Below are positions 45,897 to 60,964 of a stretch of DNA of 64,000 bases, piece by piece. This DNA comes from Acrocarpospora phusangensis (GTDB taxonomy: Bacteria; Actinomycetota; Actinomycetes; Streptosporangiales; Streptosporangiaceae). Every line of letters begins with the position of its first letter. Positions within the stretch are counted from its first letter, which is position 1. The notes under the pieces were generated by a model. The model was given only the letters and a program-made list of their open reading frames with translations, did no database searches and was not told the origin of the DNA. The stretch spans positions 1 through 64,000 of the forward strand of contig NZ_BOOA01000018.1 in the NCBI RefSeq assembly GCF_016862995.1, in the 5' to 3' direction. The position numbers and the translations under genes are program-made.

Positions 45897-47051
45897 TCAG
45901 GAGGCTACGAGAGCCTGGATGCTGACGGTGGCCGCCCCGCGCGCCCACTCCTCGAAGGGCAGGGGGCGGATGGAGAGCGGGCAGTCGGCGGCGGCGCCGA
46001 ACGCCTGCCGCTGGAAGCCGGCCCGGATGTGCGGCTCGAACAGGTCGTAGGCCGCCAAGCCCTCGCCGGAGACCACTATCCGGGCCGGGCCGACCAGGTT
46101 CGCGACCGCGGCGATGCCGGAGCCGATCGCGTCGCCAGCCCGAGCGAAGACGGCGCCGACCGGGGCGTCGCCAGCTCGGGCCAGCGTCACCGCGTCCTCG
46201 AAAGTAAGCTCCGGCCGTCCGGCGGCCGCCCGGGCCTGCCGGACGATGGCGTCGGCGCCGGCGATCGCCTCGACGCAGCCGCGGCTCCCGCAGTGGCAGG
46301 CCGGGCCGTTCACGTCGATGCCGATATGGCCGATCTCGCCGGCCACGCCGTGTGAGCCGGAGACGAGGCTGCCGCCGACGACCAGGCCGCAGCCGATGCC
46401 CGCGCCGACGGTCACGAGGGCGAACGACTCAGCGCCGACGCCCTCGCCGAACCAGTGCTCGGCGGTGGTCAGTGCCTTCACGTCGTTCTCCACGGTGACG
46501 GCGAGGCCGGTGATCTTCTCCGCCCGTTCCCGCAGGGGCAGGTCGTGCCAGCGCAGGAACGGCGAGTACCGCACCAGACCGGTGGAGCGGTCGACGTCGC
46601 CGGAGACGGCCAGCCCAAGCCGGCGGGTGCGGGCCCGGTAATCGCTGGGACTGTCAAGTAATTCGTCGACGAGCTCGCCCAGCTGGGTGAGGACGTGGTC
46701 GACGTCGGGCGCCGAGAGTCGCCGGTGGGCCGCGGTGCGGACCCCGGCGCGAAGGTCGCAGACCACGCCGATCAGCTCGTCACCGGTGATCTTCACGCCC
46801 ACGAAGAACTCGCGGTCGGCCCGGATGGCCAGCGGGCTGGCCGGCCGCCCGGCGCCCGGCCCGGTCCGCTCGGTCGCGGCCAGCTCCTCCAGGTAGCCCA
46901 TCTCGATGAGCGGACGCGCCGCTTTGGTGACGGCGGCGGAGGACAGGCCGAGCCGACGGGCGAGGGCGACGCGGCTGATCGGGCCCTCGGTCAACACGGT
47001 GGTGAACACCGCCGTGACTGCGGGCGCTACGGCGTCAGCCTCGGGAAACAT
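45897..47051 (-). CDS. ROK-family transcriptional repressor
   Basis: 384 residues. N-terminal winged helix (ISRVALARRLGLSSAAVTKA, ARPLIEMGYLEEL), then a sugar-kinase-like ROK domain: VGVKITGDELIGVVCDL, VTVGAGIGCGLVVGGSLVSG, HGVAGEIGHIGIDVNGPACH and the zinc motif CHCGSRGCVEAIAG. Such proteins (NagC/XylR type) bind a sugar and release DNA. It diverges from the alpha-galactosidase operon, with a 30-bp site between them that is repeated exactly 11 kb away ahead of the transporter/GH27 pair, so it very likely controls both. Confidence 0.93.
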   Translation of the reverse strand: MFPEADAVAPAVTAVFTTVLTEGPISRVALARRLGLSSAAVTKAARPLIEMGYLEELAATERTGPGAGRPASPLAIRADREFFVGVKITGDELIGVVCDLRAGVRTAAHRRLSAPDVDHVLTQLGELVDELLDSPSDYRARTRRLGLAVSGDVDRSTGLVRYSPFLRWHDLPLRERAEKITGLAVTVENDVKALTTAEHWFGEGVGAESFALVTVGAGIGCGLVVGGSLVSGSHGVAGEIGHIGIDVNGPACHCGSRGCVEAIAGADAIVRQARAAAGRPELTFEDAVTLARAGDAPVGAVFARAGDAIGSGIAAVANLVGPARIVVSGEGLAAYDLFEPHIRAGFQRQAFGAAADCPLSIRPLPFEEWARGAATVSIQALVAS

Positions 47052-47067
47052 GACCGAAATCTAAGCT

Positions 47068-47097
47068 CAATAATTTCCTTCGTCAAGTATTGATTTG
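47068..47097. promoter_or_regulatory. ROK operator, copy 1
   Basis: 30 bases identical to 58196-58225. Its first 25 bases form an interrupted palindrome: CAATA (47068-47072) and TATTG (47088-47092), with TT/AA and C/G matches inside. Identity weakens but persists outward: AAACATG-n-CCGAAA on the left, including the ROK start codon region, and CCTACGCTCG on the right. It covers the -35 box of the rightward promoter, consistent with repression. Confidence 0.8.
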
Positions 47098-47119
47098 GCC
47101 GCGAGCGCGGACCTACGCT
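47090..47119 (+). promoter_or_regulatory. Promoter of the alpha-galactosidase operon
   Basis: TTGATT (47090-47095), 18-base spacer, TACGCT (47114-47119). The same boxes and spacing occur at 58218-58247. The -35 box lies inside the ROK site. Confidence 0.55.
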
Positions 47120-47166
47120 CGCTGCACTCACCGCCCACGCTCTCACGATCACGACCGAGGAACCAG

Positions 47167-49263
47167 ATGTCCCCCCTGCTGTTCGATCCCCGCCGGCGCC
47201 TGTGGCTGCTGCGTACCCCGTCCACGTCGTACGCCGTACGGATCGACGAGGACGACACCGTGCGGCACGTGCACTGGGGCGGGGCCCTGACCCTGGCGCA
47301 GGCTCGGGAGCTGGCCGAGCGCACCCCGGCGGCGGGCAGCAGCTTCGACGCCGTGGGCGGGGCGGAGGAGCTGGCCGTGGAGGGCGGCGCGCGCTTCGGG
47401 CCGCCCGGCCTTCAGGTGCGCTTCGCCGACGGCACTCGCGCCGTCGAGTGGCGCTACGCCGGCCACGACGCCGCGGACGGCCGGCTGAGCATCCACCTGG
47501 ACGACCGGCACTACCCGCTGCGTGTCACCCTGCATTACCGGGTGCACGAGGACAGCGACATGATCGAGCGGTGGACCACCGTCGAGAACCGCGACGAGCG
47601 GCTCCCGATCACCGTGCAGCGCTGCGACAGCGCGGCGTGGACCCTGCCGTGCCGGGGCGGCTACCGGGTGAGCCACCTGGTCGGCGGCTGGAACAGCGAG
47701 TTCCGGCTGCGCCGGGCCGAGGTCGCCACCGCCGAGACGGTTTTCACCAGCCGGCGCGGCATGACCAGCCACCAGGCCAACCCCTGGCTGGCCTTCGACG
47801 ACGGCACGGCCGGCGAGGAGCACGGTGAGGTGTGGAGCACCGCGCTGGCCTGGAGCGGCAGCTGGCGGATCACCCTGCACCGCGACCCGGCCGGCCGTAC
47901 GACGTGGACCGGCGGCCACGGTCACGAGGGGCTCACCTGGTCGCTCGCGCCCGGCGAGACCCTCAGCACGCCGGTCTTCGCCGGCCTGTTCACCGCCGGC
48001 GGGTTCGGCGCGGCCAGCCGGGCCTGGCACGCGTACGTCGCCAGGCACGTGCTCCCGCACCCCGAGGAGCTGCGGCCGGTGCTCTACAACTCGTGGGAGG
48101 CGACGGGTTTCGACGTCGACGAGGCGGGCCAGCGGGCGCTGGCCGCGCTGGCCGCGCGGATCGGCGTCGAGCTGTTCGTGGTGGATGACGGCTGGTTCGG
48201 CGGCCGCGTCAGCGACCACGCCGGCCTCGGCGACTGGACGCCCAACCCGGACCGCTTCCCCCGCGGCCTGCGGCCGCTCTCCGCCGAGGTGCACCGGCTC
48301 GGTATGCGATTCGGGCTGTGGGTCGAGCCGGAGATGGTCAACCCCGACAGCGACCTCTACCGGGCGCATCCGGACTGGGTGCTGCACATGGCCAACCGCG
48401 AACGTACCGAGATGCGGCACCAGCTCGTGCTCAACCTCGCCCGGCCGGACACCGCCGCCTGGGCCCACGCCTGGCTCGACCGGCTGGTGGCGGAACACGA
48501 CATCGACTTTCTCAAATGGGACGCCAACCGGCCGTTCACCGAGGCCGGCTGGCCTGGCGACGCCGACCCCGACCGATTGTGGATCGAGCACACGCGGTCG
48601 GTCTACCGGATCATGGATCGGCTGCGCGCCGATCACCCCGGTCTGCGGATCGAGGCGTGCGCCGGCGGCGGCGGGCGTGCCGATCTGGGCATCCTCGCCC
48701 GCACCGACCAGATCTGGACCTCGGACAACACCGACCCCGTCGACCGGATCGCCATCCAGCACGGCTTCAGCCAGCTCTTCCCGGCCCAGGTCATGGGCGC
48801 GTGGGTGACCGACAGCCCAAACGTGGCCACCGGCAGGAAGACCCCGTTGCGTTTCCGGTTCCATGTCGCCATGGCCGGGGCGCTGGGTGTCGGCGGCGAC
48901 CTCACCACGTGGACCGAGGACGAGCTCAAGGAGGCCGCCGGGCTGATCGCCACCTACAAGCGCATCCGGCCGGCGGTCCAGCACGGCACGGCGTACCGGC
49001 TTACCGGGGAGGGCGCCCTGACGGCGGTGGGATTCGCGCACGAGAACCAGTTCGTGGTGCTCGCCTGGTGCCCGTCGCGCCCGTACGGCCGTCAACCCGC
49101 CCCGCTGCGGCTGACCGCGCTCGACCCCGGCGCCACCTACCGGGATCCGGACACCGGCGCCACCTACTCCGGAGCCGTCCTGCTGCAGTCCGGCCTTCCC
49201 CTCCACCTGCCCGAGGGCGACCATGCCAGCGCCCTCGTCCAGCTCATCCGCATCGAGGACTGA
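47167..49263 (+). CDS. GH36 alpha-galactosidase, cytoplasmic
   Basis: 698 residues from ATG 47167 (MSPLLFDPRRRLWLLRTPST). N-terminal beta-supersandwich to about residue 310, then the catalytic barrel with YNSWEATGFDVDEAGQ, VDDGWFGGR, LKWDANR (nucleophile Asp452) and WTSDNTDP (acid/base Asp520), and a C-terminal sandwich. The GH36 family releases terminal alpha-galactose from oligosaccharides such as melibiose and raffinose. No signal peptide, so it acts on imported sugars. First gene of a four-enzyme operon; 3 bases before the esterase gene. Confidence 0.93.
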   Translation: MSPLLFDPRRRLWLLRTPSTSYAVRIDEDDTVRHVHWGGALTLAQARELAERTPAAGSSFDAVGGAEELAVEGGARFGPPGLQVRFADGTRAVEWRYAGHDAADGRLSIHLDDRHYPLRVTLHYRVHEDSDMIERWTTVENRDERLPITVQRCDSAAWTLPCRGGYRVSHLVGGWNSEFRLRRAEVATAETVFTSRRGMTSHQANPWLAFDDGTAGEEHGEVWSTALAWSGSWRITLHRDPAGRTTWTGGHGHEGLTWSLAPGETLSTPVFAGLFTAGGFGAASRAWHAYVARHVLPHPEELRPVLYNSWEATGFDVDEAGQRALAALAARIGVELFVVDDGWFGGRVSDHAGLGDWTPNPDRFPRGLRPLSAEVHRLGMRFGLWVEPEMVNPDSDLYRAHPDWVLHMANRERTEMRHQLVLNLARPDTAAWAHAWLDRLVAEHDIDFLKWDANRPFTEAGWPGDADPDRLWIEHTRSVYRIMDRLRADHPGLRIEACAGGGGRADLGILARTDQIWTSDNTDPVDRIAIQHGFSQLFPAQVMGAWVTDSPNVATGRKTPLRFRFHVAMAGALGVGGDLTTWTEDELKEAAGLIATYKRIRPAVQHGTAYRLTGEGALTAVGFAHENQFVVLAWCPSRPYGRQPAPLRLTALDPGATYRDPDTGATYSGAVLLQSGLPLHLPEGDHASALVQLIRIED

Positions 49264-49266
49264 CCC

Positions 49267-50223
49267 ATGGCCTTCTTCGACCTTCCCCTCGCCCAGCTGC
49301 GCGACTACCGCCCGGCCCTCGACCAGCCGGACGACTTCGACGCCTTCTGGTCGCGCACGCTCACCGCCGCCCGCAAGCACGACCTGGCGGCCGAGGTGAC
49401 GCCCTACGACGCGCTGCTGCCCGGGGTGCGCGTCTCCGACGTGCGGTTCAGCGGGTACGACGGGCAGCGGGTGGCCGCCTGGCTCGTCGAGCCCGCCATC
49501 GGCGACCGGCCGCTGCCGTGCGTCGTGCAGTTCATCGGGTACGGCGGCGGGCGCGGGCGGCCGCACGAATGGCTGCTGTGGCCGGCCGCGGGCTATGCCG
49601 TGCTCGTGGTGGACTCGCGCGGCCAGGGCGACGGCGACACCCCCGACCTGCCCGGCGACAACACGCCACACCATAACGGCCTGATGACGCGCGGCGTGCT
49701 CGACCCCGAGACGTACTACTACCGCCGGCTGTTCACCGACGCGGTACGGGCGGTGGACCTGGCGTCCACCCTCCCCGCTGTGGACCCCGGCCGCATCGTG
49801 GTGGCCGGCGCGAGCCAGGGCGGCGGCATCGCGCAGGCGGTGGCCGGCCTGCACCGCCAGGTCCGGGCCGCGCTGATCGACGTGCCGTTCCTGACCTGCT
49901 TCCGGCGGGCCACCGAGATCACCGACTCGTACCCGTACCAGGAGCTGTCGAACTTCTGCGCGGCCAACCGCGACCGCGTCGAGCAGGTCTTCCACACTCT
50001 GGGGTACTTCGACGGCGGGCACTTCGCCGCCCGGGCCACCGCGCCGGCGTTGTACTCCGTCGGTCTCATGGACGACGTGTGCCCGCCGTCCACGGTCTTC
50101 GCCGCCTACAACCACTACGCGGGGCCGAAGCGGATGCAGGTCTGGCCGTACAACCGGCACGAGGGCGGCGGGTCGTTCCAGACGCCGGTCCAGCTGCCGT
50201 GGCTTCGCGATCAGCTGGCCTGA
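49267..50223 (+). CDS. CE7 acetyl-xylan esterase / cephalosporin C deacetylase-like
   Basis: 318 residues. DDFDAFWSRTLTAARKHDLA and the late Ser183 in GASQGGG, Asp in GLMDDVCPPST and His in NRHEGGG are the CE7 triad. DSRGQGDGDT and the hexamer-forming beta-interface segment (HNGLMTRGVLDPETYYYRRL) are diagnostic. Members remove acetyl groups from small acetylated sugars inside the cell. Within this operon it probably de-acetylates imported oligosaccharides before the glycosidases act. Confidence 0.93.
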   Translation: MAFFDLPLAQLRDYRPALDQPDDFDAFWSRTLTAARKHDLAAEVTPYDALLPGVRVSDVRFSGYDGQRVAAWLVEPAIGDRPLPCVVQFIGYGGGRGRPHEWLLWPAAGYAVLVVDSRGQGDGDTPDLPGDNTPHHNGLMTRGVLDPETYYYRRLFTDAVRAVDLASTLPAVDPGRIVVAGASQGGGIAQAVAGLHRQVRAALIDVPFLTCFRRATEITDSYPYQELSNFCAANRDRVEQVFHTLGYFDGGHFAARATAPALYSVGLMDDVCPPSTVFAAYNHYAGPKRMQVWPYNRHEGGGSFQTPVQLPWLRDQLA

Positions 50224-50231
50224 GGAGTCCG

Positions 50232-52541
50232 ATGCCTTCCACCGTTCTCTGCTACGACCGGCCCGCCGAGCGCTGGTTCGAAGCGTTGCCGATCGGCAAC
50301 GGCCGGCTCGGCGGCATGGTCTACGGGGGCGTGGGCACCGAGAGCGTCCGGCTGTCCGAGTCGACCGCGTGGTCGGGGGCGCCCTCGGCCACCGACGTGA
50401 GCCCCACGGCGCTCAGCATGTTGCCGGCCGTGCGGCGGCTGCTGTTCGAAGGCCGGCAAGCCGAGGCCCAGCGGCTGGCCGAGGAGCACCTGCTCGGCCG
50501 GCCGACATCGTTCGGCACCAACCTGCCGCTCCCTCGGCTGCGGCTGGATTTCGGCGGCGGCGTGTGCCGCGACTACCGTCGCCGGCTGGACCTCGGCGAC
50601 GGTGTCGTCCGGGTCGAGTTCGAACAGGACGGCATCCATCACCTGCGGGAGGTCCTCGCCTCCCATCCCCACGGGGTCATCGCGCTGCGCCTCACGGCTG
50701 ACCGTCCCGGCGCGGTCAGCTTCACGGCCGGCCTGGACGACAGCGTGCTGCCCGGCGAGGTGACGACCACCGCGTCCGGCGTCGCGTTCAGCGGCCACGC
50801 GGTCGAATCGCTGCACAGCGACGGAAACCGGGGCGCCGCCGTCGAGGTCCGCGTCCGGATCGAGGCCGAGGGCGGAACGCTGCGCCGCGACACCGGCACC
50901 GGCACCGGCACCGGCACCGGCACGGTCGCCGTCACCGGCGCGGACGCGGCCGTCGTGCTGGTCGCGGTCGGCACGGACTGGGCCGGCGACGACCCGGCCG
51001 ACCGGGCGGAGAGGCTGATCGCCTCGGCCGCCGGGGCCGGCTACGACGTGGTGCGCGCCGCGCACGTCGAGGACCACCGCCGCCTGATGGGCCGGGTGTC
51101 GATCGACCTCGGCGAGCCGGTCGACCTGCCCACCGACCTGCGCCGGGAACGCCTCGCCCGCGGCGAGCGCGACGACGACCTGATCGCCCTGTACTTCCAG
51201 TACGGCCGCTACCTCACCATCGCCGGCTCCCGGGAGGACTCACCCCTGCCGCTCGCCTTGCAGGGAGTGTGGAACGACGGGCTCGCCAGCACCTCGGGCT
51301 GGAGCGACGACTTCCACCTCGACATCAACACCCAGCAGAACTACTGGGCCGCCGAACCGGCCAACCTCGCCGAATGCCACACCCCGCTGGTCCGGTTCCT
51401 CCAGCGGCTCGCCGAGCACGGCCGGGACACCGCCGAGCGGATGTACGGCGCGGACGGCTGGGTCGCGCACACGGTCACCAACGCCTGGGGCTACACCGCA
51501 CCGGGTGGCGGCATGGGCTGGGGCATGAACGTCACCGGCGGCTTCTGGCTCGCCCTGCAACTGTGGGAGCACTACGAGTACCAGCCCGACGACGAGTTCC
51601 TCCGCGAGGAGGCCTACCCCGTTCTCCGCGACGCCGCGCTGTTCCTGCTCTCCTACCTGGTGCCTCATCCGGCCCACGGCTGGCTCGTGGCCGGCCCCTC
51701 CGACTCACCGGAGAACTGGTACCTGGCGCCGGACGGCACACCGTGCTCGATCGCGATGGGCAACACCGTCGACCGCGTCTTCGCCGAGGCGATCCTGCGG
51801 ATCTGCCACCAGGCCGCCACCGTCCTGGACCTCGACCCTGACCTTCGCGAGCGCGTCGCCGCCGCCCGGGAAAGGCTGTCGCCGTTCCGGATCGGCCGGC
51901 ACGGTCAGCTGCGGGAGTGGCTGGACGACGCCGAGGAGGCGGTTCCCGAACACCGGCACACCTCACACCTGTGCGCGGTGTTTCCCGAGCGGCAGATCAC
52001 GCCGCGGCGCACGCCTGAGCTCGCCCGTGCCGCCGAGGTCGTCCTGGAACGCCGGCAGGCGGCGCCGGGCTGGGAGCAGACCGAGTGGGTGGAGGCGAGC
52101 TTCGCCGCCTACTACGCCCGTCTGCTCGACGGCGAGAAGGCGCTGGCCCACCTCACCAGGTTGATCACCGACGCCAGCGAGGCGAACCTGCTCAGCTACT
52201 CCGTCGGCGGTGTCGCCGGCGCCGAGCAGAACATCTACTCCTTCGACGGCAACGCCGGCGGCACCGCCGCGATCGCCGAGATGCTGCTGCAGTCCGACGG
52301 TGAGGAGGTCGAGCTGCTGCCGGCGCTGCCGTCCGCCTGGCGCGACGGCTCGGTCCGCGGGCTGCGCGCCCGCGGCGGCTTCACGGTCGACCTGGCCTGG
52401 CGGGACGGGCGACTGCGCCAGGCACGGATCCAGTGCGACAGGGCGGCGCGCACCCGCGTCCGCTATCGCGAGGCCACCATCGAGGTCGCCTGCCATCCGG
52501 CGGAAGGACTCATCCTTGAGGAGCGCCACTTCACGACCTGA
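50232..52541 (+). CDS. GH95 alpha-L-fucosidase/alpha-L-galactosidase
   Basis: 769 residues from ATG 50232, 6 bases after GAGGAG. N-terminal beta domain (WFEALPIGNGRLGGMVYGGV), helical barrel with DINTQQNYWAAEPANLAECH (Asn residues that assist the base), AGPSDSPENWYL (general acid Glu494) and EHRHTSHLCAVFPERQITPR. GH95 enzymes invert alpha-1,2-L-fucosyl or alpha-L-galactosyl linkages. No signal peptide. Residues about 221-230 are a TG dipeptide run from a five-unit microsatellite. The 3' end overlaps the GH110 start. Confidence 0.9.
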   Translation: MPSTVLCYDRPAERWFEALPIGNGRLGGMVYGGVGTESVRLSESTAWSGAPSATDVSPTALSMLPAVRRLLFEGRQAEAQRLAEEHLLGRPTSFGTNLPLPRLRLDFGGGVCRDYRRRLDLGDGVVRVEFEQDGIHHLREVLASHPHGVIALRLTADRPGAVSFTAGLDDSVLPGEVTTTASGVAFSGHAVESLHSDGNRGAAVEVRVRIEAEGGTLRRDTGTGTGTGTGTVAVTGADAAVVLVAVGTDWAGDDPADRAERLIASAAGAGYDVVRAAHVEDHRRLMGRVSIDLGEPVDLPTDLRRERLARGERDDDLIALYFQYGRYLTIAGSREDSPLPLALQGVWNDGLASTSGWSDDFHLDINTQQNYWAAEPANLAECHTPLVRFLQRLAEHGRDTAERMYGADGWVAHTVTNAWGYTAPGGGMGWGMNVTGGFWLALQLWEHYEYQPDDEFLREEAYPVLRDAALFLLSYLVPHPAHGWLVAGPSDSPENWYLAPDGTPCSIAMGNTVDRVFAEAILRICHQAATVLDLDPDLRERVAAARERLSPFRIGRHGQLREWLDDAEEAVPEHRHTSHLCAVFPERQITPRRTPELARAAEVVLERRQAAPGWEQTEWVEASFAAYYARLLDGEKALAHLTRLITDASEANLLSYSVGGVAGAEQNIYSFDGNAGGTAAIAEMLLQSDGEEVELLPALPSAWRDGSVRGLRARGGFTVDLAWRDGRLRQARIQCDRAARTRVRYREATIEVACHPAEGLILEERHFTT
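50892..50921 (+). repeat. ACCGGC microsatellite, 5 units
   Basis: Five perfect hexamers inside the GH95 gene, encoding Thr-Gly five times in a surface loop between beta strands. Hexamer steps keep the frame, so length changes would be tolerated. Confidence 0.9.
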
Positions 52542-54309
52542 ACCGGTGGTGGTGGACGTGACCGCGTTCGGCGCCGACCCGACCGGCCGGGCCGACTCGG
52601 CCCCTGCGGTCGCCGCGGCGCTGCGGTACGCCAGAACCCTCCACCGTCCCGTCGAGATCGTTTTCTCCAGTGGCACGTATCGGCTCTATCCCGAGCGTGC
52701 CGAGCTCCGTGAGCTGTACGTGTCCAACACCGTCGGCGCCGATCAGCGCTACCGGGACAAGCGGATCGGGCTGCTCGTCGAGGACATGCGCGACGTCACG
52801 GTCGACGGCCGCGGCGCCAGGCTGGTCTGTCACGGACCGCAGACGGCGTTCGCGGTGATCCGTTCCGCGAACGTGACGTTCACGAATCTCTCCATCGACT
52901 ACGCCGCCCCGAAGGTGATCGACGCGACGGTCGCCGCGGCCGGCGTCACCGGCGGCCGGGCATGGCGCCGCCTGTCCCTCCCCGCCGGCACCCGCTACCG
53001 CGTCGACGGCGCCCACATCACCTGGCTCGGCGAGACCAGCCCGGCGAGCGGGCAGCCCTACTGGTCGGGCGTGGACGGCCTGGAGTACACGCAGATCCAC
53101 GACCCCGCGGCGCAGCGGACATGGCGTGGGGACAACCCGCTGTTCACCGACGTCGCCGCGGTCGTCGACCTGGGTGCGGGCAGGATCCGCATCGACTACA
53201 CGAGCGCGACGCCACCCGCCGACGCGGGCCTCGTCTACCAGATGCGGCTCATCGAGCGCGTGCACCCGGGCGCGTTCATCTGGGAGTCCCGGAATGTCAC
53301 GATGCGCTCGATGAACGTCCACTACCTTCAGGAGTTCGGCGTCGTGGGGCAGTTCAGCGAGAACATCACGATCGACCGGGTGAACTTCGCACCGGACCCC
53401 GCGTCCGGCCGGACGTCGTCGTCATTCGCGGACCATGTCAACTTGTCGGGCGTCAGGGGCAGAGTCACGATCACCGGCTGCGCCTTCGACGGACCGCACG
53501 ACGATCCGATCAACGTCCACGGGACCTACCTCGAGGTGATCGGCAAGCCGGAGCCGGCCACCCTCAGCCTCGCCTACATGCACCGTGAGACGGCCGGATT
53601 CCCGCAGTTCCATCCCGGTGACCAGGTGCGGTTCATCGACAAGCGCACGATGACTCCGCTCGCCGGCCCGCCCGCGGCCGTCACCGCGGTGGACGGGCCG
53701 AACGGCACGGACCACAGCCGGCCGCTGACCACGATGACGGTGACGTTCGACCGTCCGGTGCCCGACGGCGTCGCAGTCGGCGGCACGGTCACGGAGAACC
53801 TCACGTGGGCGCCGGAGGTGCTCATCTCCGGCAACGTCTTCCGCAACGTACCGACCCGCGGCGTGCTGGTGACCACGCCGAAGCCCGTACTGATCACCGG
53901 CAACCGGTTCGACGGCATGTCGATGGCCGACATCTCCATCTCCGCCGACGCCTCCTCGTGGTACGAGTCCGGCGCGGTCACCGACGTGACCATCAGCGGG
54001 AACACGTTCACCAGGCCCGCCGGTCCGGTCATCTTCGTGGAGCCGACCAACGAGGTCGCCGATTCGTCCCGCCCGGTGCATCACGACATCTCGGTCAAGG
54101 ACAACACGTTCGAGGTCGGCGACGTGACCGTGGCCGACGTCAGGAGCGTCAGCGGATTCCGCTTCACCGGCAACGTCGTGCGCCGCCTGGACGGGCAGGA
54201 CCGGCCGCCGTACGCCTCGCCGCTGTTCGTCTTCCACGGCGGCTCCGGCATCGTGATCGCCGGCAACCACTACGACCCGGGCCTGAACCCGTCGGTGATC
54301 GAGGACTGA
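52516..54309 (+). CDS. GH110-like exo-alpha-1,3-galactosidase (parallel beta-helix)
   Basis: 597 residues. TTG 52516 is preferred: AAGGA lies 7 bases upstream, and this overlaps the GH95 gene by 26 bp. GTG codons at 52546-52558 lack a ribosome site. VDVTAFGADPTGRADSAPAV opens a right-handed beta-helix. HDDPINVHGTYLEVIG (Asp329, Asp330) is the strongest GH110 mark, alongside MRSMNVHYLQEFGVVGQFSE and repeated ISGN/ITGNRF coils. GH110 enzymes cleave terminal alpha-1,3-galactose, including blood-group B types. No signal peptide, unlike the known gut enzymes, so cytoplasmic action on imported sugars is predicted. Confidence 0.8.
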   Translation: MRSATSRPEPVVVDVTAFGADPTGRADSAPAVAAALRYARTLHRPVEIVFSSGTYRLYPERAELRELYVSNTVGADQRYRDKRIGLLVEDMRDVTVDGRGARLVCHGPQTAFAVIRSANVTFTNLSIDYAAPKVIDATVAAAGVTGGRAWRRLSLPAGTRYRVDGAHITWLGETSPASGQPYWSGVDGLEYTQIHDPAAQRTWRGDNPLFTDVAAVVDLGAGRIRIDYTSATPPADAGLVYQMRLIERVHPGAFIWESRNVTMRSMNVHYLQEFGVVGQFSENITIDRVNFAPDPASGRTSSSFADHVNLSGVRGRVTITGCAFDGPHDDPINVHGTYLEVIGKPEPATLSLAYMHRETAGFPQFHPGDQVRFIDKRTMTPLAGPPAAVTAVDGPNGTDHSRPLTTMTVTFDRPVPDGVAVGGTVTENLTWAPEVLISGNVFRNVPTRGVLVTTPKPVLITGNRFDGMSMADISISADASSWYESGAVTDVTISGNTFTRPAGPVIFVEPTNEVADSSRPVHHDISVKDNTFEVGDVTVADVRSVSGFRFTGNVVRRLDGQDRPPYASPLFVFHGGSGIVIAGNHYDPGLNPSVIED

Positions 54310-54315
54310 CCGAAA

Positions 54316-54353
54316 GAGTCCCAGCCGGTCGTTTTACCGACCGGCTGGGACTC
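54316..54353. terminator. Bidirectional terminator between convergent operons
   Basis: Perfect 16-bp stem GAGTCCCAGCCGGTCG (54316-54331) and complement (54338-54353), loop ttttac. It sits 7 bases after the GH110 stop and 7 bases before the binding-protein stop at 54360, serving both. Confidence 0.88.
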
Positions 54354-54359
54354 CTCACG

Positions 54360-56045
54360 TCAGTTGCCGGGCCGAGTCTTGTCGTACGCCTGCTGGTAGA
54401 GCTCGAGGTAGCGCTTCATGCCGAGCCCGTCCAGGCCCTGGACCCAGGCGTCCCACTCGGTGTCGATGTCCTTCGACCCGGTGATGAAGGCCAGCTGGCC
54501 CTGGCTGACGTAGCTGTCGAGGTTGGTCTTCAAGGTGGCCAGCTCGGAGACCACGCTCGGGTCGGCCCAGACCTGCGCCTCCGGGAAGACCTGAGCCTTG
54601 TCCACGTGCGGCTCGTACAGCTTCGTCGCCTCGAACAACCGCCGCTCCAGGCCGGCCTCGGAGTAGATGTCCTTCGGCACCGCCTGAGCGTTGCGCAGCG
54701 CGAGCGTGACGTAGTACTGCCCCATGGACGACCAGGAGAGGTTCTGCGGGACCTCGCTGGCGGGCTTCGGCTTCCAGGTGGGGCTCACCGTCGTGTCGAG
54801 GGCGATGTCGTCGGGGCCGGGCTTGACCCAGCCGACCCCTTCGGGCCCGGAGTTGGCGACGAGCTGTCCCTCATCGGTGTAGATGGAGTCGAGCATCTTG
54901 ATCGCCGCGATACGCGCCTCCATGCTCGACTTGTTGGTCAGCATGAAGGTGTAGCCGATCGAGGTCGGGTTGTTGTACCCGGTGTAGCTCTTGCCCGTGG
55001 GGCCGGTCAGCGGCGGCGCGGCGTCGTACTGCTTGTCCCGGCCGTCCTTGGAGGAGAGCTGGACGAAGATGCCGGGCCACAGCACGGGCACGGAGCCGAG
55101 CCGGACCGCGGCCGGGTCGTTGCCGACGGCCTGCAGCGCCTCGGCGTTCTGGGTGAAGGAGGCCTGGTCGATCAGGCCTTCCTCATAGAGCGACTTGATG
55201 TACTTCAGGCCCTCACGCCACTCGGGCTTGTCGACGGGCGTGGTCACCTTGCCGCCGTCGAGCTTGAGCAGTGACGGGATGCCGTTGCTGGCGCCGTACG
55301 GCGCGTAGGCGAACGCTCCCATCAGGTAGCCGATCAGCGTGCCGTCCTGCGTGTCGGTGGTCATCGGGATCTCGTCGGCCTTGCCGTTGCCGTTCGGATC
55401 CTGGGTCTTGAACGCCCGCAGGACCGTGCGCAGTTCCTCGGTCGTCTTCGGCATCTCCAGGTTGAGCTTCTTCAACCACTCGGAGTTGATCCACAGCTTG
55501 TTGGGGTAGGTGCAGTGGTAGCAGTCGGACCACTGCGGCAGCGCGTAGATGTGACCGTCCGGCGCGGTCGACATCGCCTTGAGCACGCTGTTGGAGTCCA
55601 GCGCCTTCTGGATGTTCGGCGCGTGCTCCTTGATCAGGCCCTCCAGCGGCACCGCGACGCCCTGCTTGCCAAGCTTCTGGAGGTCGGTCTTGGTGAACGC
55701 GTCGACGTAGGGGATCAGCAGGAACATGTCCGGGTAGTCGCCGCTCGAGATCGCGATCTGGCGCTTCTCCTTGGCCGGCCCGCCGTCCATCGTGGTGGCC
55801 TGGAACTCGAACTTGATCTTGAACTTGTCACTGAGCAGACCCGTGACCGTGTTCGTGTCGAGCTTCATCTCGGGATTGGCCGGCGCCATCACCGAGATGA
55901 CGACCTTGTCGCCCTCCATCTTCGCCTTGGGGGCGCTGTCCGTGCTGTTGCTGTTGCTGCTGCCGCCGGAGGTGCAGCCCGCCGCGACCAACGCCGCGGT
56001 GGCCACGACTGCGGCGATTCTGGTTCTGGAATAATGCGGCTTCAT
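54360..56045 (-). CDS. Large sugar-binding lipoprotein of a CUT1 ABC importer (LplA-like)
   Basis: 561 residues. Signal RIAAVVATAALVAAGC with lipobox, Ser/Gly/Asn linker, then an extracellular solute-binding family 1 domain (MAPANPEMKLDTNTVTGLLS, SGDYPDMFLLIPYVDAFTKT, KTQDPNGNGKADEIPMTTDT). The calcium-loop-like DPNGNGKADEIP and large size match the LplA/YtcQ subgroup, whose members bind complex oligosaccharides. Last gene of the transporter operon, 27 bases after the LplC-like stop. Confidence 0.92.
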   Translation of the reverse strand: MKPHYSRTRIAAVVATAALVAAGCTSGGSSNSNSTDSAPKAKMEGDKVVISVMAPANPEMKLDTNTVTGLLSDKFKIKFEFQATTMDGGPAKEKRQIAISSGDYPDMFLLIPYVDAFTKTDLQKLGKQGVAVPLEGLIKEHAPNIQKALDSNSVLKAMSTAPDGHIYALPQWSDCYHCTYPNKLWINSEWLKKLNLEMPKTTEELRTVLRAFKTQDPNGNGKADEIPMTTDTQDGTLIGYLMGAFAYAPYGASNGIPSLLKLDGGKVTTPVDKPEWREGLKYIKSLYEEGLIDQASFTQNAEALQAVGNDPAAVRLGSVPVLWPGIFVQLSSKDGRDKQYDAAPPLTGPTGKSYTGYNNPTSIGYTFMLTNKSSMEARIAAIKMLDSIYTDEGQLVANSGPEGVGWVKPGPDDIALDTTVSPTWKPKPASEVPQNLSWSSMGQYYVTLALRNAQAVPKDIYSEAGLERRLFEATKLYEPHVDKAQVFPEAQVWADPSVVSELATLKTNLDSYVSQGQLAFITGSKDIDTEWDAWVQGLDGLGMKRYLELYQQAYDKTRPGN

Positions 56046-56072
56046 GGCCTTGTTCCTTTTCCTTGGGTTTCC

Positions 56073-57005
56073 TCACCCCTTGACCGCGCCCACCATTGCA
56101 CCCTTGGTGAAGTGCCGCGCGATAAACGGGTACATAATCAATACGGGCAGGCTCGAGACAACAATGAGCGCATACCTGAGGACATTCGCAAGCTGAATCT
56201 GATGCATCTGCTGGGCCAGATCCACGGCGCCGGTTCTGGGTGTGTTGAGAATGAGAATGTTGCGCAACACGATCTGCAGCGGGAACAGGTCGGGATCCTT
56301 GAGATAGACCAGGGCGTCGAAATAGGTGTTCCATTGAAAGACGGTGTACATCAACGCGAGGACGGCCAGCAGCGGCTTCGACAGCGGCAACACCACCGAC
56401 CACAGAGTCCGCAGTCCGCTCGCCCCGTCCAGCATCGACGCCTCATAGAGCTCCTCGGGGATCGAGTTGGCGAAGAACGTACGGGCGATGATCACCTGCC
56501 AGACGCCGATCGCGTTGGGAAGCAGCAGGGCCCAGCGCGTGTCGAGCAGCCCGATGTCCTGGACCACCATGTACGTCGGAATCAGGCCGCCGGAGAACAG
56601 CATCGTGAAGATGAGCAGCGTCATCAGTACGTTGCGTCCGAAAAAGGTCTTGCGGGACAGCGGATATGCGATGGCCACCGTCAGCGTGACACTGATCAGC
56701 GTGCCGGCGACGGCGTAGATCAGCGAGTTGTAGTACCCCTGCAAGATCTCTGAATTGCTCAGGACGGACTGGTAGGCTTCCAGTGAGAATTCGACCGGCC
56801 AGAATCTCACCCGGCCGGAATTGACCGCGGCCGGGCTACTGAGCGAGCTGGCCACGATGTAGATCAGTGGCAGCAGCACCAGCGCCAGCGTCACCGCCAG
56901 CATGAGCTTGACAACGATCAGGACCATCCGGTCGCCGAGCGGTTCGCGGACCTTCGCCGCGGCCGGGCGGGTGCGCCGCGGCTTGGACGCAAGCGTGGTC
57001 GTCAT
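56073..57005 (-). CDS. CUT1 sugar ABC permease (LplC/MalG-like)
   Basis: 310 residues, six membrane segments. SLSSPAAVNSGRVRFWPVEF and EELYEASMLDGASGLRTLWS (EAA loop) mark the MalG-type subunit. ATGA overlap with the other permease. No ATPase is encoded; a shared MsiK-type ATPase elsewhere in the genome is the usual actinomycete solution (family knowledge, not seen here). Confidence 0.93.
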   Translation of the reverse strand: MTTTLASKPRRTRPAAAKVREPLGDRMVLIVVKLMLAVTLALVLLPLIYIVASSLSSPAAVNSGRVRFWPVEFSLEAYQSVLSNSEILQGYYNSLIYAVAGTLISVTLTVAIAYPLSRKTFFGRNVLMTLLIFTMLFSGGLIPTYMVVQDIGLLDTRWALLLPNAIGVWQVIIARTFFANSIPEELYEASMLDGASGLRTLWSVVLPLSKPLLAVLALMYTVFQWNTYFDALVYLKDPDLFPLQIVLRNILILNTPRTGAVDLAQQMHQIQLANVLRYALIVVSSLPVLIMYPFIARHFTKGAMVGAVKG

Positions 57006-58012
57006 CGCCACAGTCCTCTTCCAGTGATTCGCTTGGCCGCGAAGTTGACCACCAGCAGCAGGCAGAGATTGACCACCGAATTGAACAGGCCCACGGCGGA
57101 GGCCATGCTGAAGTCCGCGTTGATCAGGCCGGTCTTGTAGACGTAGGTCGGGATGATCTCCGACTGCGCGAGGTTCAGATTGTTCTGCAACAGGTAAGCC
57201 TTCTCGAACCCGATCGCCATCATGTTGCCCACGGCGAGGATCAGCATGATCACCGCGGTCGGCATGATTCCCGGCAGATCGACGTACCGGATCCGCTGCA
57301 GCCGGGTGGCCCCGTCGATCTTGGCCGCCTCGTGCAGCGCCGGGTCGATGCCGGCGAGCGCGGCCAGGTAGATGACGGCCCCGTAACCGGCGGTCTGCCA
57401 GACGTCGGTCCACACATAGATGTGCCGGAAGAAGTCCTGCTCACCGAGGAAGTCGATCGGGCCGATGCCGAACAGCTTGAGCCCCTCGTTCACGATGCCG
57501 ATCCGGGGCGAGAGCACCAGGATCGTCATCGAGACCACGACCACGGTGGAGATGAAGTACGGCGCGTACGTGACCATCTGCACGGTGCGCTTGAACCAGC
57601 CGTTGCGGATCTCGTTCAACGCCAGCGCCAGCAGGATCGGGATCGGGAAGCTCGCCAGCACCAGGTAGAAGGCCAGGATGAGGGTGTTCTTCAGCAGGTC
57701 GACGAAGACCGGGTTGCTGAATAGCCGCTCGAAGTTCTGCAGCCCCACCCAGTCGCTGGCCCACGGACCCAGCACGGGGCTGTAGTCCTTGAAGGCGATG
57801 ACGTTGAAGGCCATCGGTATGTACTTGAAGATGATGAAATAGGCGATCGGCACGCTCGCCAGCAGGTACAGCTGCCAGTGCAGGCGCCAGGACTTTTTCG
57901 CCTCGGACCAGCGGCTGCGCCGGCGCGCCGCGGCGGCCGGGCGCCGCGGCGGCCTGGCCGGACCCTCGTTCGCGCTCGGCGAGCGAACCGGATGCGGAGT
58001 GGTGGTCGACAT
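57002..58012 (-). CDS. CUT1 sugar ABC permease (LplB/MalF-like)
   Basis: 336 residues from ATG 58012, whose A is the last base of the stop of a small upstream ORF (TGATG). Basic, Pro-rich N-terminus, then six membrane segments and the EAA loop LHEAAKIDGATRLQRIRYVD. YSPVLGPWASDWVGLQNFER is typical of the LplB subgroup. With the LplC-like partner it forms the pore for the lipoprotein receptor. Confidence 0.92.
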   Translation of the reverse strand: MSTTTPHPVRSPSANEGPARPPRRPAAAARRRSRWSEAKKSWRLHWQLYLLASVPIAYFIIFKYIPMAFNVIAFKDYSPVLGPWASDWVGLQNFERLFSNPVFVDLLKNTLILAFYLVLASFPIPILLALALNEIRNGWFKRTVQMVTYAPYFISTVVVVSMTILVLSPRIGIVNEGLKLFGIGPIDFLGEQDFFRHIYVWTDVWQTAGYGAVIYLAALAGIDPALHEAAKIDGATRLQRIRYVDLPGIMPTAVIMLILAVGNMMAIGFEKAYLLQNNLNLAQSEIIPTYVYKTGLINADFSMASAVGLFNSVVNLCLLLVVNFAAKRITGRGLWR

Positions 58013-58179
58013 CAGGCCGCCCGCTTCCGGTCGGATGGACCGGTTCGCGCTGGAACGGCACTCACGCCCAAGACCGCCGCCCGAGCCGCCTGCGGGACGA
58101 CGAGCAGGCCGAGCTGTCGAACCTCCTCCATGCGGGAGAGGGTGGCGGCACCCGGCCGAGCGCCGATTTCTAGAAACAT
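58012..58179 (-). CDS. Small ORF coupled to the permease operon, possible ROK-gene remnant
   Basis: 55 codons from ATG 58179, beginning MFLEIGARPGAATLSRMEEV and ending by TGATG overlap with the permease ATG. The start occupies the same place relative to the 30-bp ROK site as the ROK gene start at 47051, and the shared sequence runs through the start codon (AAACATG). A weak similarity to the ROK N-terminus exists (M-F-x-E start, later RQLGL against RRLGL). Either a leader peptide that couples translation, or the leftover start of a duplicated regulator gene. I do not recognise a family. Confidence 0.4.
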   Translation of the reverse strand: MFLEIGARPGAATLSRMEEVRQLGLLVVPQAARAAVLGVSAVPARTGPSDRKRAA

Positions 58180-58195
58180 GGCCGAAACGTAAGCC

Positions 58196-58225
58196 CAATA
58201 ATTTCCTTCGTCAAGTATTGATTTG
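58196..58225. promoter_or_regulatory. ROK operator, copy 2
   Basis: Identical over 30 bases to 47068-47097, between the leftward transporter operon and the rightward GH27 gene. CAATA and TATTG form the outer dyad. The -35 box of the rightward promoter lies at its right end. Confidence 0.8.
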
Positions 58226-58247
58226 CTGCCGGTATCGGCCCTACGCT
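58218..58247 (+). promoter_or_regulatory. Promoter of the GH27 gene
   Basis: TTGATT (58218-58223), 18 bases, TACGCT (58242-58247), matching the alpha-galactosidase operon promoter. It leaves a leader of about 200 nt before the GTG at 58454; I see no gene in that leader. Confidence 0.5.
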
Positions 58248-58453
58248 CGGCGGCACTCTGTGCTCGTCTCCCACCCAGCGCCGAGGCCTCGCGCCCATGT
58301 CGTTCGATGCCGATCATCGGCCGTCCGCGACCTGCCCGAACCGCACATCCGCACCGGCTTCGAGCGCCGGGCCTCGGGTGCCGCACGCCGGCGGTCGCCG
58401 CCCATTCGACGCCTGCCGTTCGAGGATCGGTACTTCCACCAGGAGGTGTGACC

Positions 58454-60958
58454 GTGAGGTCACCATTACGCGTCGCCGCACATTTATCCGGTCGGCGAAC
58501 CCGCGCCGCCGTCGCCGTACTGTCCGCCGCACTGCTCCTGTCGCCGATCGCCGAGTCGGCGGCCGCCACCGGCCCCAAGCCGAGCCCGCCACTCGACGCG
58601 CGGGCCATCGCGCCCGCACCCGGCTCGTCCAGCGCGGGGGCCAACGGGCCGGCCGCCTCCACCCCCGACCCCTGGGCCGTACGGCCGTACATGGGGTGGA
58701 GCAGCTACAGCATGCAGGTCTACTCCGGAAACGGGAAATGGATCACGGCCGACCAGATCATCAAGCAGTCCGACGCGATGCGCGCCAAGCTCCAGAAGTA
58801 CGGCTACGAGTACATCAACGTCGATGCCGGATGGAACGACGGGATCGACGCCAACGGCCGTCCGAAACCCAGCGCCACGCTCTACCCGCAGGGCCTGCAG
58901 AAGGTCATCGACCACGTCCACGCGAACGGCCAGAAGTTCGGGCTCTACCTGATCCCCGGCGTCGGCCCCGAGGTCTACAACGCGAGCCTGCCGATCGCCG
59001 GCGCGCCCGGCTGCACCACGCACGACATCGCCGCCCAGCCCCTCCGGCCCTCCGACTACTGGCACCTCGGCTATCGGATCGACTTCTCGAATCCGTGCTC
59101 CCAGAAGTACATCGACTCGATCGCCGACCTCCTCGCCGAGTGGGGCGTCGACTTCGTCAAGTTCGACAGCGTCACGCCCGGATCCGGCGTGAGCGACCTG
59201 TCGCTCGACGCCCGCGACGATGTCGCCGCCTGGTCGGCGGCGCTCAAGGCGCGAAAGATCTGGTTCGAGCTGTCCTGGGCGCTCGACCCGAAGTACGCCG
59301 ACTACTGGCGGTCCAAGGCGAACGGCTGGCGGATCGACTGGGACGTCGAGTGCTACTGCACCAACGAGGCGCTCACCCAGTGGCAGAGCATCGCCCGGCT
59401 CTTCCCGCTCGTGTCGACCTGGTGGCGCTACGGCGGCAACGGCGGGTGGAACGACCTCGACTCGCTCAACATCGGCAACGGCACCATGGACGGCCTGACC
59501 CGCGACGAACGGCAGACCGCGATGACGCTGTGGGCGATCTCCGCCGCACCGCTGTACACCGGCAACGACCTGACCAAGCTTGACGCGTACGGCCTGAGCC
59601 TGCTCACCAACCCGGAGGTGATCGCGGTCGACCAGGCCGGCACTCCGGCGCGCCCGGTCTCCACGACGGCGCAGCAGCAGGTCTGGTACTCGCTCAACGC
59701 CGACGGCAGCTACACGGTCGCGCTGTTCAACCTCGGCCGTACCGACAAGGACATCACCGCCAACTGGTCGGACCTCGGGCTGACCGGCGCCGCCACCGTA
59801 CGCGACCTGTGGGCCCGCAGGGACCTCGGCCGCTTCGACGGCAAGTTCACCGCCGCCACGGTCCCGATCCACGGCGTACGCCTGCTCAAGGTGACGCCGC
59901 AGCGCGGCGCCGCGGTCGCCGTCAACGACGACGCCCTGCGCGTCCGGTACGAGGGCGACTGGACCCGCAACGGCGGGAACGAGGTCGCCGCCACCTCCCA
60001 GCCGCTCACCGTGACCGTCACCGACACCGGTACCCCCGCCCCGCCGTCGACGACCGGCCCCGTCCGCACGGTCATCCACGACAACACCGACCCGGGCATC
60101 GCGTACATCGGGAACTGGTCGCAGAGCACCGGCCGGGGGCTCGGCGACTACAACGACAACGTGCACTACGCCGAGCGCGACGGCGACGCGTTCGAGTACA
60201 CGTTCACCGGAACCGGCGTCTCGTACGTCACCGAGATGGACGTCTCCCAGGGCAACGTCGACATCTACCTCGACGGCCAGTTCGTGAAGACCGTGAACAC
60301 CGGACGTGAGCAGGGCCAGCCCCGCCTCGCCCAGCAGGCCGTCTTCACGGTGAACGACCTGCCCAACGGCAGCCACACGCTCCGCGTGGTCAAGAAGTCG
60401 GGCTTCTTCATGCTGCTCGACCGCATCGACGTGTTCCAGCCGAGCCTGATCGACCCGTTCACGGCGTCGTTCGACCGGAAGGCGCCGGCGGACGTGCAGG
60501 TCAAGCTCCTGCGCGACGGCAGCGAGTTCACCGGCGTCTCGCGCGGCGGCACCGCGCTCGAACGGGACCGGGACTACATCCTGTCCGGCTCGACCGTGAC
60601 CCTGCGCTCGGCCTATCTCGCCGGCCTTCCGCTCGGCGCGGCGCAACTGGACTTCGCGTTCCGCGGTGACTACCTGGACGACGTCCACGCCACGACCCGC
60701 AACGGCGACTCCGTCTCGTACGCGTTCACCGGAACCGGCGTCGACTGGATCACCGCCACCGCACCCGACCAGGGGCTGGTCGACGTGTACATCGACGGCA
60801 AGCTCATCCGCCGGGTCGACACCCACAGTGCCGTACGGGCGACGCGACAGACCGTGTTCAGCGTCTCAGGACTGAGGAACCAGCAGCACACCTTCAAGGC
60901 GGTCAAGGCTTCGGGCGACGTGATGCGCACCGACGTCATCCGCTACACCACTCGCTGA
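58454..60958 (+). CDS. Secreted GH27 alpha-galactosidase with C-terminal accessory domains
   Basis: 834 residues. GTG 58454 sits 7 bases after AGGAGG. Signal peptide with RRTRAAVAVLSAALLLSPIA. Catalytic barrel about 75-400: RPYMGWSSYSMQVYSGNGKW, YEYINVDAGWNDG, DFVKFDSV (nucleophile Asp238) and WRIDWDVE (acid/base Asp297), then a beta-sandwich (VALFNLGRTDKDITANW). The tail carries two similar modules (EYTFTGTGVSYVTEMDVSQG, then SYAFTGTGVDWITATAPDQG) flanking an X2/Ig-like insert (about residues 670-740), probably for carbohydrate or surface binding. Releases galactose outside the cell; divergent from the importer. Confidence 0.93.
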   Translation: MRSPLRVAAHLSGRRTRAAVAVLSAALLLSPIAESAAATGPKPSPPLDARAIAPAPGSSSAGANGPAASTPDPWAVRPYMGWSSYSMQVYSGNGKWITADQIIKQSDAMRAKLQKYGYEYINVDAGWNDGIDANGRPKPSATLYPQGLQKVIDHVHANGQKFGLYLIPGVGPEVYNASLPIAGAPGCTTHDIAAQPLRPSDYWHLGYRIDFSNPCSQKYIDSIADLLAEWGVDFVKFDSVTPGSGVSDLSLDARDDVAAWSAALKARKIWFELSWALDPKYADYWRSKANGWRIDWDVECYCTNEALTQWQSIARLFPLVSTWWRYGGNGGWNDLDSLNIGNGTMDGLTRDERQTAMTLWAISAAPLYTGNDLTKLDAYGLSLLTNPEVIAVDQAGTPARPVSTTAQQQVWYSLNADGSYTVALFNLGRTDKDITANWSDLGLTGAATVRDLWARRDLGRFDGKFTAATVPIHGVRLLKVTPQRGAAVAVNDDALRVRYEGDWTRNGGNEVAATSQPLTVTVTDTGTPAPPSTTGPVRTVIHDNTDPGIAYIGNWSQSTGRGLGDYNDNVHYAERDGDAFEYTFTGTGVSYVTEMDVSQGNVDIYLDGQFVKTVNTGREQGQPRLAQQAVFTVNDLPNGSHTLRVVKKSGFFMLLDRIDVFQPSLIDPFTASFDRKAPADVQVKLLRDGSEFTGVSRGGTALERDRDYILSGSTVTLRSAYLAGLPLGAAQLDFAFRGDYLDDVHATTRNGDSVSYAFTGTGVDWITATAPDQGLVDVYIDGKLIRRVDTHSAVRATRQTVFSVSGLRNQQHTFKAVKASGDVMRTDVIRYTTR

Positions 60959-60964
60959 TCACCG

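What the first reader, a model, noticed from the sequence alone, without database searches (positions are those of the whole stretch)
45897..60958. Alpha-galactoside and fucoside utilisation locus combining GH27, GH36, GH95, GH110 and CE7
GH110 is best known from gut bacteria acting on blood-group B and alpha-1,3-galactose epitopes, and GH95 from alpha-1,2-fucose or alpha-L-galactose removal. Here both lack export signals and sit with an intracellular GH36, a small-sugar deacetylase, an LplABC-type importer and a secreted GH27 in an actinomycete. This implies import of acetylated, fucosylated or L-galactosylated alpha-galactosides and stepwise trimming inside the cell. I know of no description of such a system.
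Basis: partly seen in the sequence, partly recalled or inferred. Interest (0 to 1): 0.72.

Follow-up and report, generated by a model that had tools for sequence, protein, structure and literature searches.

The report
Soil-actinomycete cassette for fucosylated alpha-galactosides
This is a real, probably horizontally mobile set of genes with which a soil-type actinomycete likely imports sugar chains decorated with alpha-galactose, fucose and acetyl groups and takes them apart inside the cell, a job that some related enzymes in gut bacteria do outside the cell; its natural food is not yet known.

Summary
The finding holds. Pfam confirms ROK regulator, GH36, CE7, GH95, GH110, two LplBC-type permeases and a secreted GH27. 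GH110 keeps the three catalytic aspartates. A 26-bp operator-like motif occurs only twice in the 9.1-Mb genome, between ROK and GH36 and between lplB and GH27. In eight genomes all 21 motif sites flank ROK/GH36, lplB or GH27, although in six these genes lie apart. The block is 87-95% identical in DNA to one of Nonomuraea fuscirosea and ends abruptly, suggesting transfer as a unit. Signal-less GH110s lie beside ABC permeases in 19 of 30 loci, signal-bearing ones in 2 of 50; a tree-aware test is not significant. Fucose is favoured over L-galactose: a relative's GH110 locus carries an L-fuconate-type pathway, also present in this genome, and related operators flank GH29-like genes. GH110 is not a constant regulon member. 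Substrate undetermined.

The parts
45897..47051 (-). ROK-family transcriptional regulator, probable repressor of the locus
   Evidence: PF00480 160 bits with winged-helix PF13412; the motif begins 16 bp beyond its start codon
47068..47093 (.). operator-like motif, copy 1 (ROK/GH36 divergent intergenic)
   Evidence: exact 26-bp match; only two in the whole genome at up to 3 mismatches, reversed-pattern control 0
47167..49263 (+). GH36 alpha-galactosidase, probably cytoplasmic (the ORF opens at 47095)
   Evidence: PF02065 384 bits; best solved relative AgaB, E 5.5e-118; KWD and SDNTD present (motif roles recalled)
49267..50223 (+). CE7 acetyl esterase, probably cytoplasmic
   Evidence: PF05448 372 bits; 1vlq acetyl xylan esterase/cephalosporin-C deacetylase E 1.4e-122; RGQ, GASQGGG, RHEGG present (motifs recalled)
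50232..52541 (+). GH95 alpha-L-fucosidase (or alpha-L-galactosidase), probably cytoplasmic
   Evidence: PF22124 478 bits; E495 aligns with AfcA E566, N367 with N423, H363 with H419, but D365 stands at AfcA N421 (numbering counts the codon before the ATG)
52546..54309 (+). GH110 alpha-1,3-galactosidase without visible signal peptide (start codon uncertain)
   Evidence: PF23764; 8yk3 E 7.9e-147; D296, D319, D320 and R438 invariant in 25 sequences; spacing 23 and 1 as in D321/D344/D345 of PdGH110B
54360..56045 (-). LplA-type solute-binding lipoprotein
   Evidence: solved relatives 5g5y E 2.4e-52 and AlgQ2; lipobox-like N terminus by eye
56073..57008 (-). LplC-type ABC permease (start approximate)
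   Evidence: PF00528 27.6 bits, cut-off 26.4
57002..58012 (-). LplB-type ABC permease (start approximate)
   Evidence: PF00528 48 bits
58196..58221 (.). operator-like motif, copy 2 (lplB/GH27 divergent intergenic)
   Evidence: exact 26-bp match; about 115 bp around it align with copy 1
58448..60958 (+). secreted GH27 with C-terminal domains (CBM_X2, CE2_N-like)
   Evidence: PF16499 91 bits, PF17801, PF03442; Ala at the specificity position

Best explanation
A regulated, laterally transferred import-then-trim pathway for small acetylated oligosaccharides that carry non-reducing alpha-galactose and alpha-1,2-linked L-fucose. Proposed course: the secreted GH27 and other outside enzymes make oligosaccharides (inferred); LplA binds them and LplBC carries them in, powered by a shared UgpC/MsiK-type ATPase encoded elsewhere (inferred; two such genes present); CE7 removes acetyl groups, GH110 the alpha-1,3-galactose, GH95 then the exposed alpha-1,2-fucose, GH36 remaining alpha-galactose (inferred from families); galactose enters ordinary metabolism and L-fucose the fuconate-type pathway encoded elsewhere in the genome (inferred). 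ROK represses the ROK/GH36 and lplB/GH27 promoters through the shared motif until a sugar product relieves it (inferred). Shown here: gene content, no visible export signals in four enzymes, catalytic residues of GH110, the shared motif and its conservation, sharp ends and high DNA identity of the block. Not shown: any substrate, any binding, any expression.
For: Families. Motif twice in the genome; 21 of 21 sites in 8 genomes lie beside ROK/GH36 (8), lplB (8, two of them shared with GH27) or GH27 alone (5); the other 18 sites found in the order lie beside ROK (15) or a GH29-like gene (3), and the one of those three that was scanned is PF01120 at 295 bits. LplA orthologues at 68% identity or more occur in 9 of 345 genomes and all 9 have GH110, adjacent in 8. 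ROK, motif, GH36 and GH95 recur together in six other regions looked at (L161, L162, L164, L204, L205, L206), with CE7 in three and a second GH27 in four. L-fuconate-type genes in the GH110 locus of Micromonospora sicca with 57-71% identical counterparts in this genome; the dehydratase matches L-fuconate dehydratase 1yey, E 7.8e-192. ATPases over cut-off at C54 and C51. Block transfer: 87-95% DNA identity against 70-86% for stretches holding gyrB-family and recN genes of the same two genomes.
Against: Seven of the 15 GH110 genomes of the order lack the exact motif, and three genomes with the exact motif have no GH110 match, so GH110 is not a fixed part of the regulon. The window's GH110, GH95 and CE7 are not close orthologues of those in the Planotetraspora regulon (about 50, 30-38 and 50% against 70-86% for ROK, GH36, LplABC and GH27). 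CE7 was not found beside GH95 in L205 and L206. No beta-galactosidase in the block, so a Gal-beta core would need another enzyme. GH27 lacks the Asp of alpha-galactosidases and GH95 one of the two catalytic Asn. The tree-aware test of signal loss against importer is not significant. Export calls are heuristic. The fuconate-type genes lie on another contig without the motif, NCBIfam gives no model over cut-off for the three of them scanned, and one resembles an L-rhamnonate-route enzyme.
Confidence: 0.6

Rival explanations
1. Fungal heterogalactan pathway: the food is mushroom (manno)fucogalactan, an alpha-1,6-galactan with fucose on O-2. GH27 cuts or trims it outside, GH95 removes O-2 fucose, GH36 the alpha-1,6-galactose, GH110 occasional alpha-1,3-galactose.
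For: A backbone of alpha-1,6-Gal with O-2 fucose is described for mushroom heterogalactans (PMC6432100 passages; PMC9410249 passages). All residues of such a chain are alpha-linked, which fits a block with four alpha-glycosidases and no beta-galactosidase. Alpha-mannosidase GH38 genes lie beside GH110 in a Planotetraspora and a Microbispora locus. Ala in place of Asp in GH27 might leave room for a 6-substituted galactose (inference).
Against: No alpha-1,3-Gal cap in the passages seen, and acetylated Gal was rejected for Macrolepiota. GH95 enzymes are known to me on Fuc-alpha-1,2-Gal-beta and xyloglucan, not on fucose linked to alpha-Gal (partly recalled).
Confidence: 0.25
2. Blood-group-B-like animal glycans: Gal-alpha-1,3(Fuc-alpha-1,2)Gal from faeces or soil animals is imported and trimmed.
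For: GH110 and GH95 act on these linkages in characterised relatives (PMC7939477 passages and Discussion; PMC10154630 passages). GH110 loci of Runella and Niabella between them carry GH123, GH35, GH20, GH29 and GH101-like genes.
Against: No beta-galactosidase or hexosaminidase in the block, and CE7 has no obvious part. Those O-glycan-like partners were seen in Bacteroidetes with mostly signal-bearing GH110, not in this lineage.
Confidence: 0.2
3. Complex arabinoxylan side chains with L-galactose: GH95 is an alpha-L-galactosidase, GH36/GH110 remove terminal D-galactose, CE7 de-acetylates.
For: GH95 alpha-L-galactosidases act on corn glucuronoarabinoxylan, which also holds some alpha-D-Gal (PMC4491172 and PMC7176698 passages). 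Solved CE7 relatives are mostly called acetyl xylan esterase or cephalosporin-C deacetylase.
Against: No xylanase, xylosidase or arabinofuranosidase in the block. GH95 has His, as in the fucosidase AfcA, at the Thr370 position of the L-galactosidase, though that residue is disputed as a determinant (PMC8245568 passages). Fuconate-type genes and GH29 in related loci favour fucose, though L-galactonate enzymes can be related to these (recalled).
Confidence: 0.12
4. Unrelated catabolic genes that happen to be neighbours.
For: Actinomycete genomes are rich in such genes (recalled); GH110 is not in every genome with the motif.
Against: The same motif joins the same genes in genera where they lie apart, and the block seems to have moved as a unit.
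Confidence: 0.04

Closest known systems
Bifidobacterium infantis/breve use of milk oligosaccharides (import, intracellular GH95)
   Same: Uptake rich in family-1 ABC binding proteins and intracellular GH95, as stated for B. infantis and B. breve in PMC7232152 (passages)
   Different: No GH110, GH36, CE7 and GH27 partnership known to me there; different habitat and regulator (recalled)
Bifidobacterium bifidum mucin/HMO system (cell-surface AfcA GH95 and GH110)
   Same: Same pair of activities, GH110 on blood group B and GH95 on alpha-1,2-fucose (PMC7232152 passages)
   Different: Enzymes at the cell surface; here both lack visible export signals
Pseudoalteromonas lambda-carrageenan GH110 (PdGH110B)
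   Same: Same family, catalytic aspartates at matching spacing
   Different: Proposed target is a sulfated marine galactan; the residues closing its +1' pocket could not be aligned here
Bacteroides ovatus complex-xylan locus with GH95 alpha-L-galactosidase
   Same: GH95 plus a GH97 active on an alpha-D-galactoside in one locus (PMC4491172 passages)
   Different: Locus has xylan backbone enzymes, none of which is in this block

Membership tests
GH110 | three catalytic Asp (D321, D344, D345 of PdGH110B) | tested here: met
   D296, D319, D320 with the same spacing, invariant in 25 sequences, in the stretch aligned to 8yk3
[quoted passage not shown]
   needs enzyme assay
GH110 | right-handed beta-helix fold | tested here: inconclusive
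   sequence match to solved GH110 chains; own structure job not finished at the last poll
GH95 | general acid Glu (AfcA E566) | tested here: met
   aligned Glu
GH95 | paired base-activating Asn421/Asn423 | tested here: not met
   Asp at the 421 position, Asn at 423; the solved chain 8zbv, named alpha-L-fucosidase, also shows Asp there
GH36 | family domains and catalytic Asp motifs (motifs recalled) | tested here: met
GH27 alpha-galactosidase | Asp at the specificity position | tested here: not met
   Ala in the window and in the other 13 aligned rows, some of which repeat one gene; Asp in alpha-galactosidases per PMC4598101 passages
GH27 beta-L-arabinopyranosidase | Ile or Glu at that position | tested here: not met
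   Ala
CE7 | AXE1 domain with RGQ, GxSQG and HE motifs (motifs recalled) | tested here: met
CUT1-type ABC importer with shared ATPase | binding protein and two permeases, ATPase elsewhere | tested here: met
   that either ATPase serves this importer is not shown
ROK repressor regulon | ROK with HTH and a conserved motif beside it | tested here: met
ROK repressor regulon | binding of the protein to the motif | not testable with these tools
   needs a gel shift or footprint

The most novel reading that the evidence does not exclude
A dedicated, laterally spreading pathway by which soil Gram-positive bacteria swallow and dismantle fucosylated alpha-galactans (B-antigen-like or fungal fucogalactan fragments) in the cytoplasm, with GH110 recruited from a secreted Streptomyces-type lineage by losing its signal peptide, and with a GH27 whose missing Asp gives it a new mode of action on substituted galactose outside the cell.
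Probability: 0.25. Interest if true: 0.7.

Novelty: new variant of a known kind. Interest (0 to 1): 0.55.

Why it matters
It would show GH110, a family studied for converting blood group B, at work in an import-based pathway of soil-type bacteria, supply cytoplasmic GH110 and GH95 candidates for glycan engineering, and give a ready regulon (motif, regulator, importer) with which an unknown glycan can be identified by ligand screening.

Tried and rejected
Rejected: chance neighbourhood (shared motif and block transfer); a strict GH110-motif link (7 of 15 GH110 genomes lack the exact motif); the His/Thr residue as proof of fucose over L-galactose (disputed); an element bounded by direct or inverted repeats (no shared 10-mer between 45561-45960 and 60931-61200; no second copy of the tRNA 3' end in the window); a significant tree-aware link of signal loss and importer (6 independent pairs, median p 0.5). 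The idea that each motif copy drags a piece of ROK shrank on recheck: 10 of 13 non-ROK sites beat 100 shuffles, where part of the motif itself was still in the comparison; with that part left out 7 of 13 beat 200 shuffles and the window's own copy does not. The +1' pocket residues of PdGH110B could not be aligned, so fucose tolerance of this GH110 is untested. NCBIfam gave no model over cut-off for the five enzymes. Literature searches for GH95+GH110+locus+soil, GH110+ABC transporter+Streptomyces and GH110+cytoplasmic+transporter listed 3, 1 and 2 papers, none of which describes such a system by title and abstract start; I opened only PMC7232152 of these, and only open-licence PMC papers are held. 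A search for ROK family with fucose and regulon found 0 papers, one for mushroom fucogalactan with acetyl 0.

Method limits: genes in fetched loci were called by a simple script; signal peptides by a hydrophobicity rule; neighbour counts depend on tblastn with representative queries and on the flank held (10 kb or less, some contigs shorter). L030 and L049 have an LplA-like gene but no permease detected, and count as without importer. GH110 relatives came from 80 of the 121 stretches confirmed.
Full report
What is there. The block runs from the stop codon of a ROK regulator (45897, minus strand) to the end of a GH27 gene (60958). In order: ROK (-), GH36 (+), CE7 (+), GH95 (+), GH110 (+), then LplA, LplC, LplB (all -), then GH27 (+). 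Pfam supports each call except the binding protein, and solved structures add alpha-galactosidases AgaA/AgaB for GH36, acetyl xylan esterase/cephalosporin-C deacetylase for CE7, GH95 enzymes, GH110 alpha-galactosidases and binding proteins (5g5y, AlgQ2) for LplA. Large overlapping ORFs on the other strand (1003 and 780 aa) hit nothing in Pfam.

Catalytic residues. It does not: D296, D319 and D320 have the spacing of D321, D344 and D345 of PdGH110B (PMC7939477, passages and Discussion read; spacing) and are invariant in 25 sequences, the window and 24 of the 80 loci. R438 is also invariant; it may be the +1-subsite Arg451, but that correspondence is inferred. GH95 keeps the general acid but has Asp in place of one of the two Asn of AfcA, and His at the AfcA His419 position. 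The weight of that His is disputed (PMC4491172 passages; PMC8245568 passages).

GH27 is odd. At the position that holds Asp in alpha-galactosidases and Ile or Glu in beta-L-arabinopyranosidases (PMC4598101 passages) the window and the other 13 rows aligned, some of them copies of one gene, have Ala. An Ala mutant of another GH27 acts weakly on both substrates. So its specificity is open.

One regulon. The intergenic regions ROK/GH36 and lplB/GH27 share an identical 26-bp motif and align over about 115 bp. It occurs nowhere else in the 9.1-Mb genome at up to three mismatches, and the reversed-pattern control gives none. Of the nine genomes with LplA at 68% identity or more, eight have the motif, 21 sites in all; every site flanks ROK/GH36 (8), lplB (8, of which two also GH27) or GH27 alone (5). 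The exception, Nonomuraea maritima (G162), has LplABC, GH110 and GH95 without it. Across 345 genomes of the order, 25 have the motif within two mismatches, 11 of them exactly, 39 sites in all. The 18 sites beyond the 21 lie beside ROK (15) or a GH29-like gene (3); one of the latter was scanned and is a GH29 alpha-L-fucosidase, with a GH97 on the other side of the motif. Two of the eight genomes, this one and N. fuscirosea, have everything in one block. In the other six the genes lie in separate loci: ROK-GH36 with GH95, LplABC with GH110 (in one, G057, on different contigs), and in those where it was seen a GH27 on its own. In six ROK-GH36 regions looked at more widely (L161, L162, L164, L204, L205, L206), all six have GH95, three CE7 (not found in L205 and L206; the contig of L164 ends there), four a second GH27, and five a different ABC importer.

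Limits of that link. Of the 15 of 345 genomes with GH110, 7 lack the exact motif; three exact-motif genomes (G205, G218, G222) have no GH110 match. Six of the seven carry a different importer with a weakly melibiase-like gene beside GH110. GH110 is thus a frequent but not constant partner.

History. DNA similarity to Nonomuraea fuscirosea covers 45896-60997, but for two short gaps, at 87-95% and stops at both ends, while stretches holding gyrB-family and recN genes of the two genomes give 70-86%; the four other genomes of the window's genus that were searched have no GH110, LplA or motif match. Lateral transfer as a unit is the simplest reading. Against Planotetraspora, ROK, GH36, GH27 and LplABC are 70-86% identical in protein, GH110 about 50%, CE7 50%, GH95 30-38%. 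In a tree of 51 GH110s (quick method) the window and N. fuscirosea fall in a 7-row starred clade in which four of the five others carry a signal peptide and none has an importer, away from a starred 12-row clade without signals, 10 of which have importer permeases. So GH110 here was probably swapped in from a secreted lineage.

Inside the cell. By a simple hydrophobicity rule 30 of 80 GH110 loci lack a signal; 19 of these and 2 of the 50 with a signal have sugar-ABC permeases in the held flank (Fisher p 7e-9; Gram-positive subset 19 of 27 against 2 of 17, p 2e-4). Rows are related, and the tree-aware test found 6 independent pairs, median p 0.5. The pattern is suggestive, not proven.

Fucose. 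The GH110 locus of Micromonospora sicca carries MR/MLE dehydratase, FAA hydrolase, SDR and aldo-keto reductase genes, the set of a non-phosphorylating 6-deoxyhexonate route (pathway recalled). This genome has a matching cluster elsewhere, and its dehydratase matches L-fuconate dehydratase 1yey at E 7.8e-192, although NCBIfam puts no model over cut-off for the three cluster proteins scanned and the FAA hydrolase resembles an L-rhamnonate-route enzyme. A second MR/MLE gene of that locus is nearer other sugar-acid enzymes than fuconate dehydratase. Together with GH95 and with GH29 in the wider motif family, L-fucose is the better supported sugar.

What remains unknown. The polymer. Mushroom heterogalactans (alpha-1,6-Gal with O-2 fucose; PMC6432100 passages) would explain four alpha-glycosidases and the absence of a beta-galactosidase, but not the alpha-1,3-galactose or the acetyl esterase. 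B-antigen-like animal glycans explain GH110 and GH95 but not the rest. Complex arabinoxylan lacks its backbone enzymes here.

Judgement. A real and coherent system, a new variant of the known import-then-trim strategy (as with intracellular GH95 in Bifidobacterium infantis and breve, PMC7232152 passages), with good evidence for co-regulation and mobility and modest evidence for substrate.

Noticed in passing
motif copies beside lplB and GH27 in L140, L144, L145, L146, L155, L157, L159; L030: Seven of 13 motif copies that do not control a full ROK gene, and the one in Micromonospora sicca, still carry sequence resembling the 5' end of ROK above 200 shuffles (the window's own copy does not), as if the regulon grew by copying the regulator's promoter and start to new genes.
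   Followed up: partly
window 44562-45696: Tyrosine integrase gene directly beside a tRNA-Met gene, about 200 bp before the block; the tRNA 3' end has no second copy in the window.
   Followed up: partly
L057, L062, L065, L069, L075, L084 (Dyadobacter): SusC/D-GH110-GH95 loci followed by genes of molybdopterin dehydrogenase type (one member of each of three clusters scanned), an unexpected neighbour of glycan genes.
   Followed up: no
L072, L081, L083 (Runella), L091 (Niabella): GH110 loci that between them hold GH123, GH35, GH95, GH101-like, GH29 and GH20 genes, resembling O-glycan degradation in Bacteroidetes with non-gut names.
   Followed up: no
L132-L138, L024, L034, L036: A second type of importer with a weakly melibiase-like protein (about 400-850 aa as called) beside GH110; family of that protein unclear.
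   Followed up: no
L124-L128: Paralogous LplABC (47-51% to the window's LplA) with GH95 and GH2-type genes but no GH110 hit, perhaps a sister system for Fuc-Gal-beta glycans.
   Followed up: no
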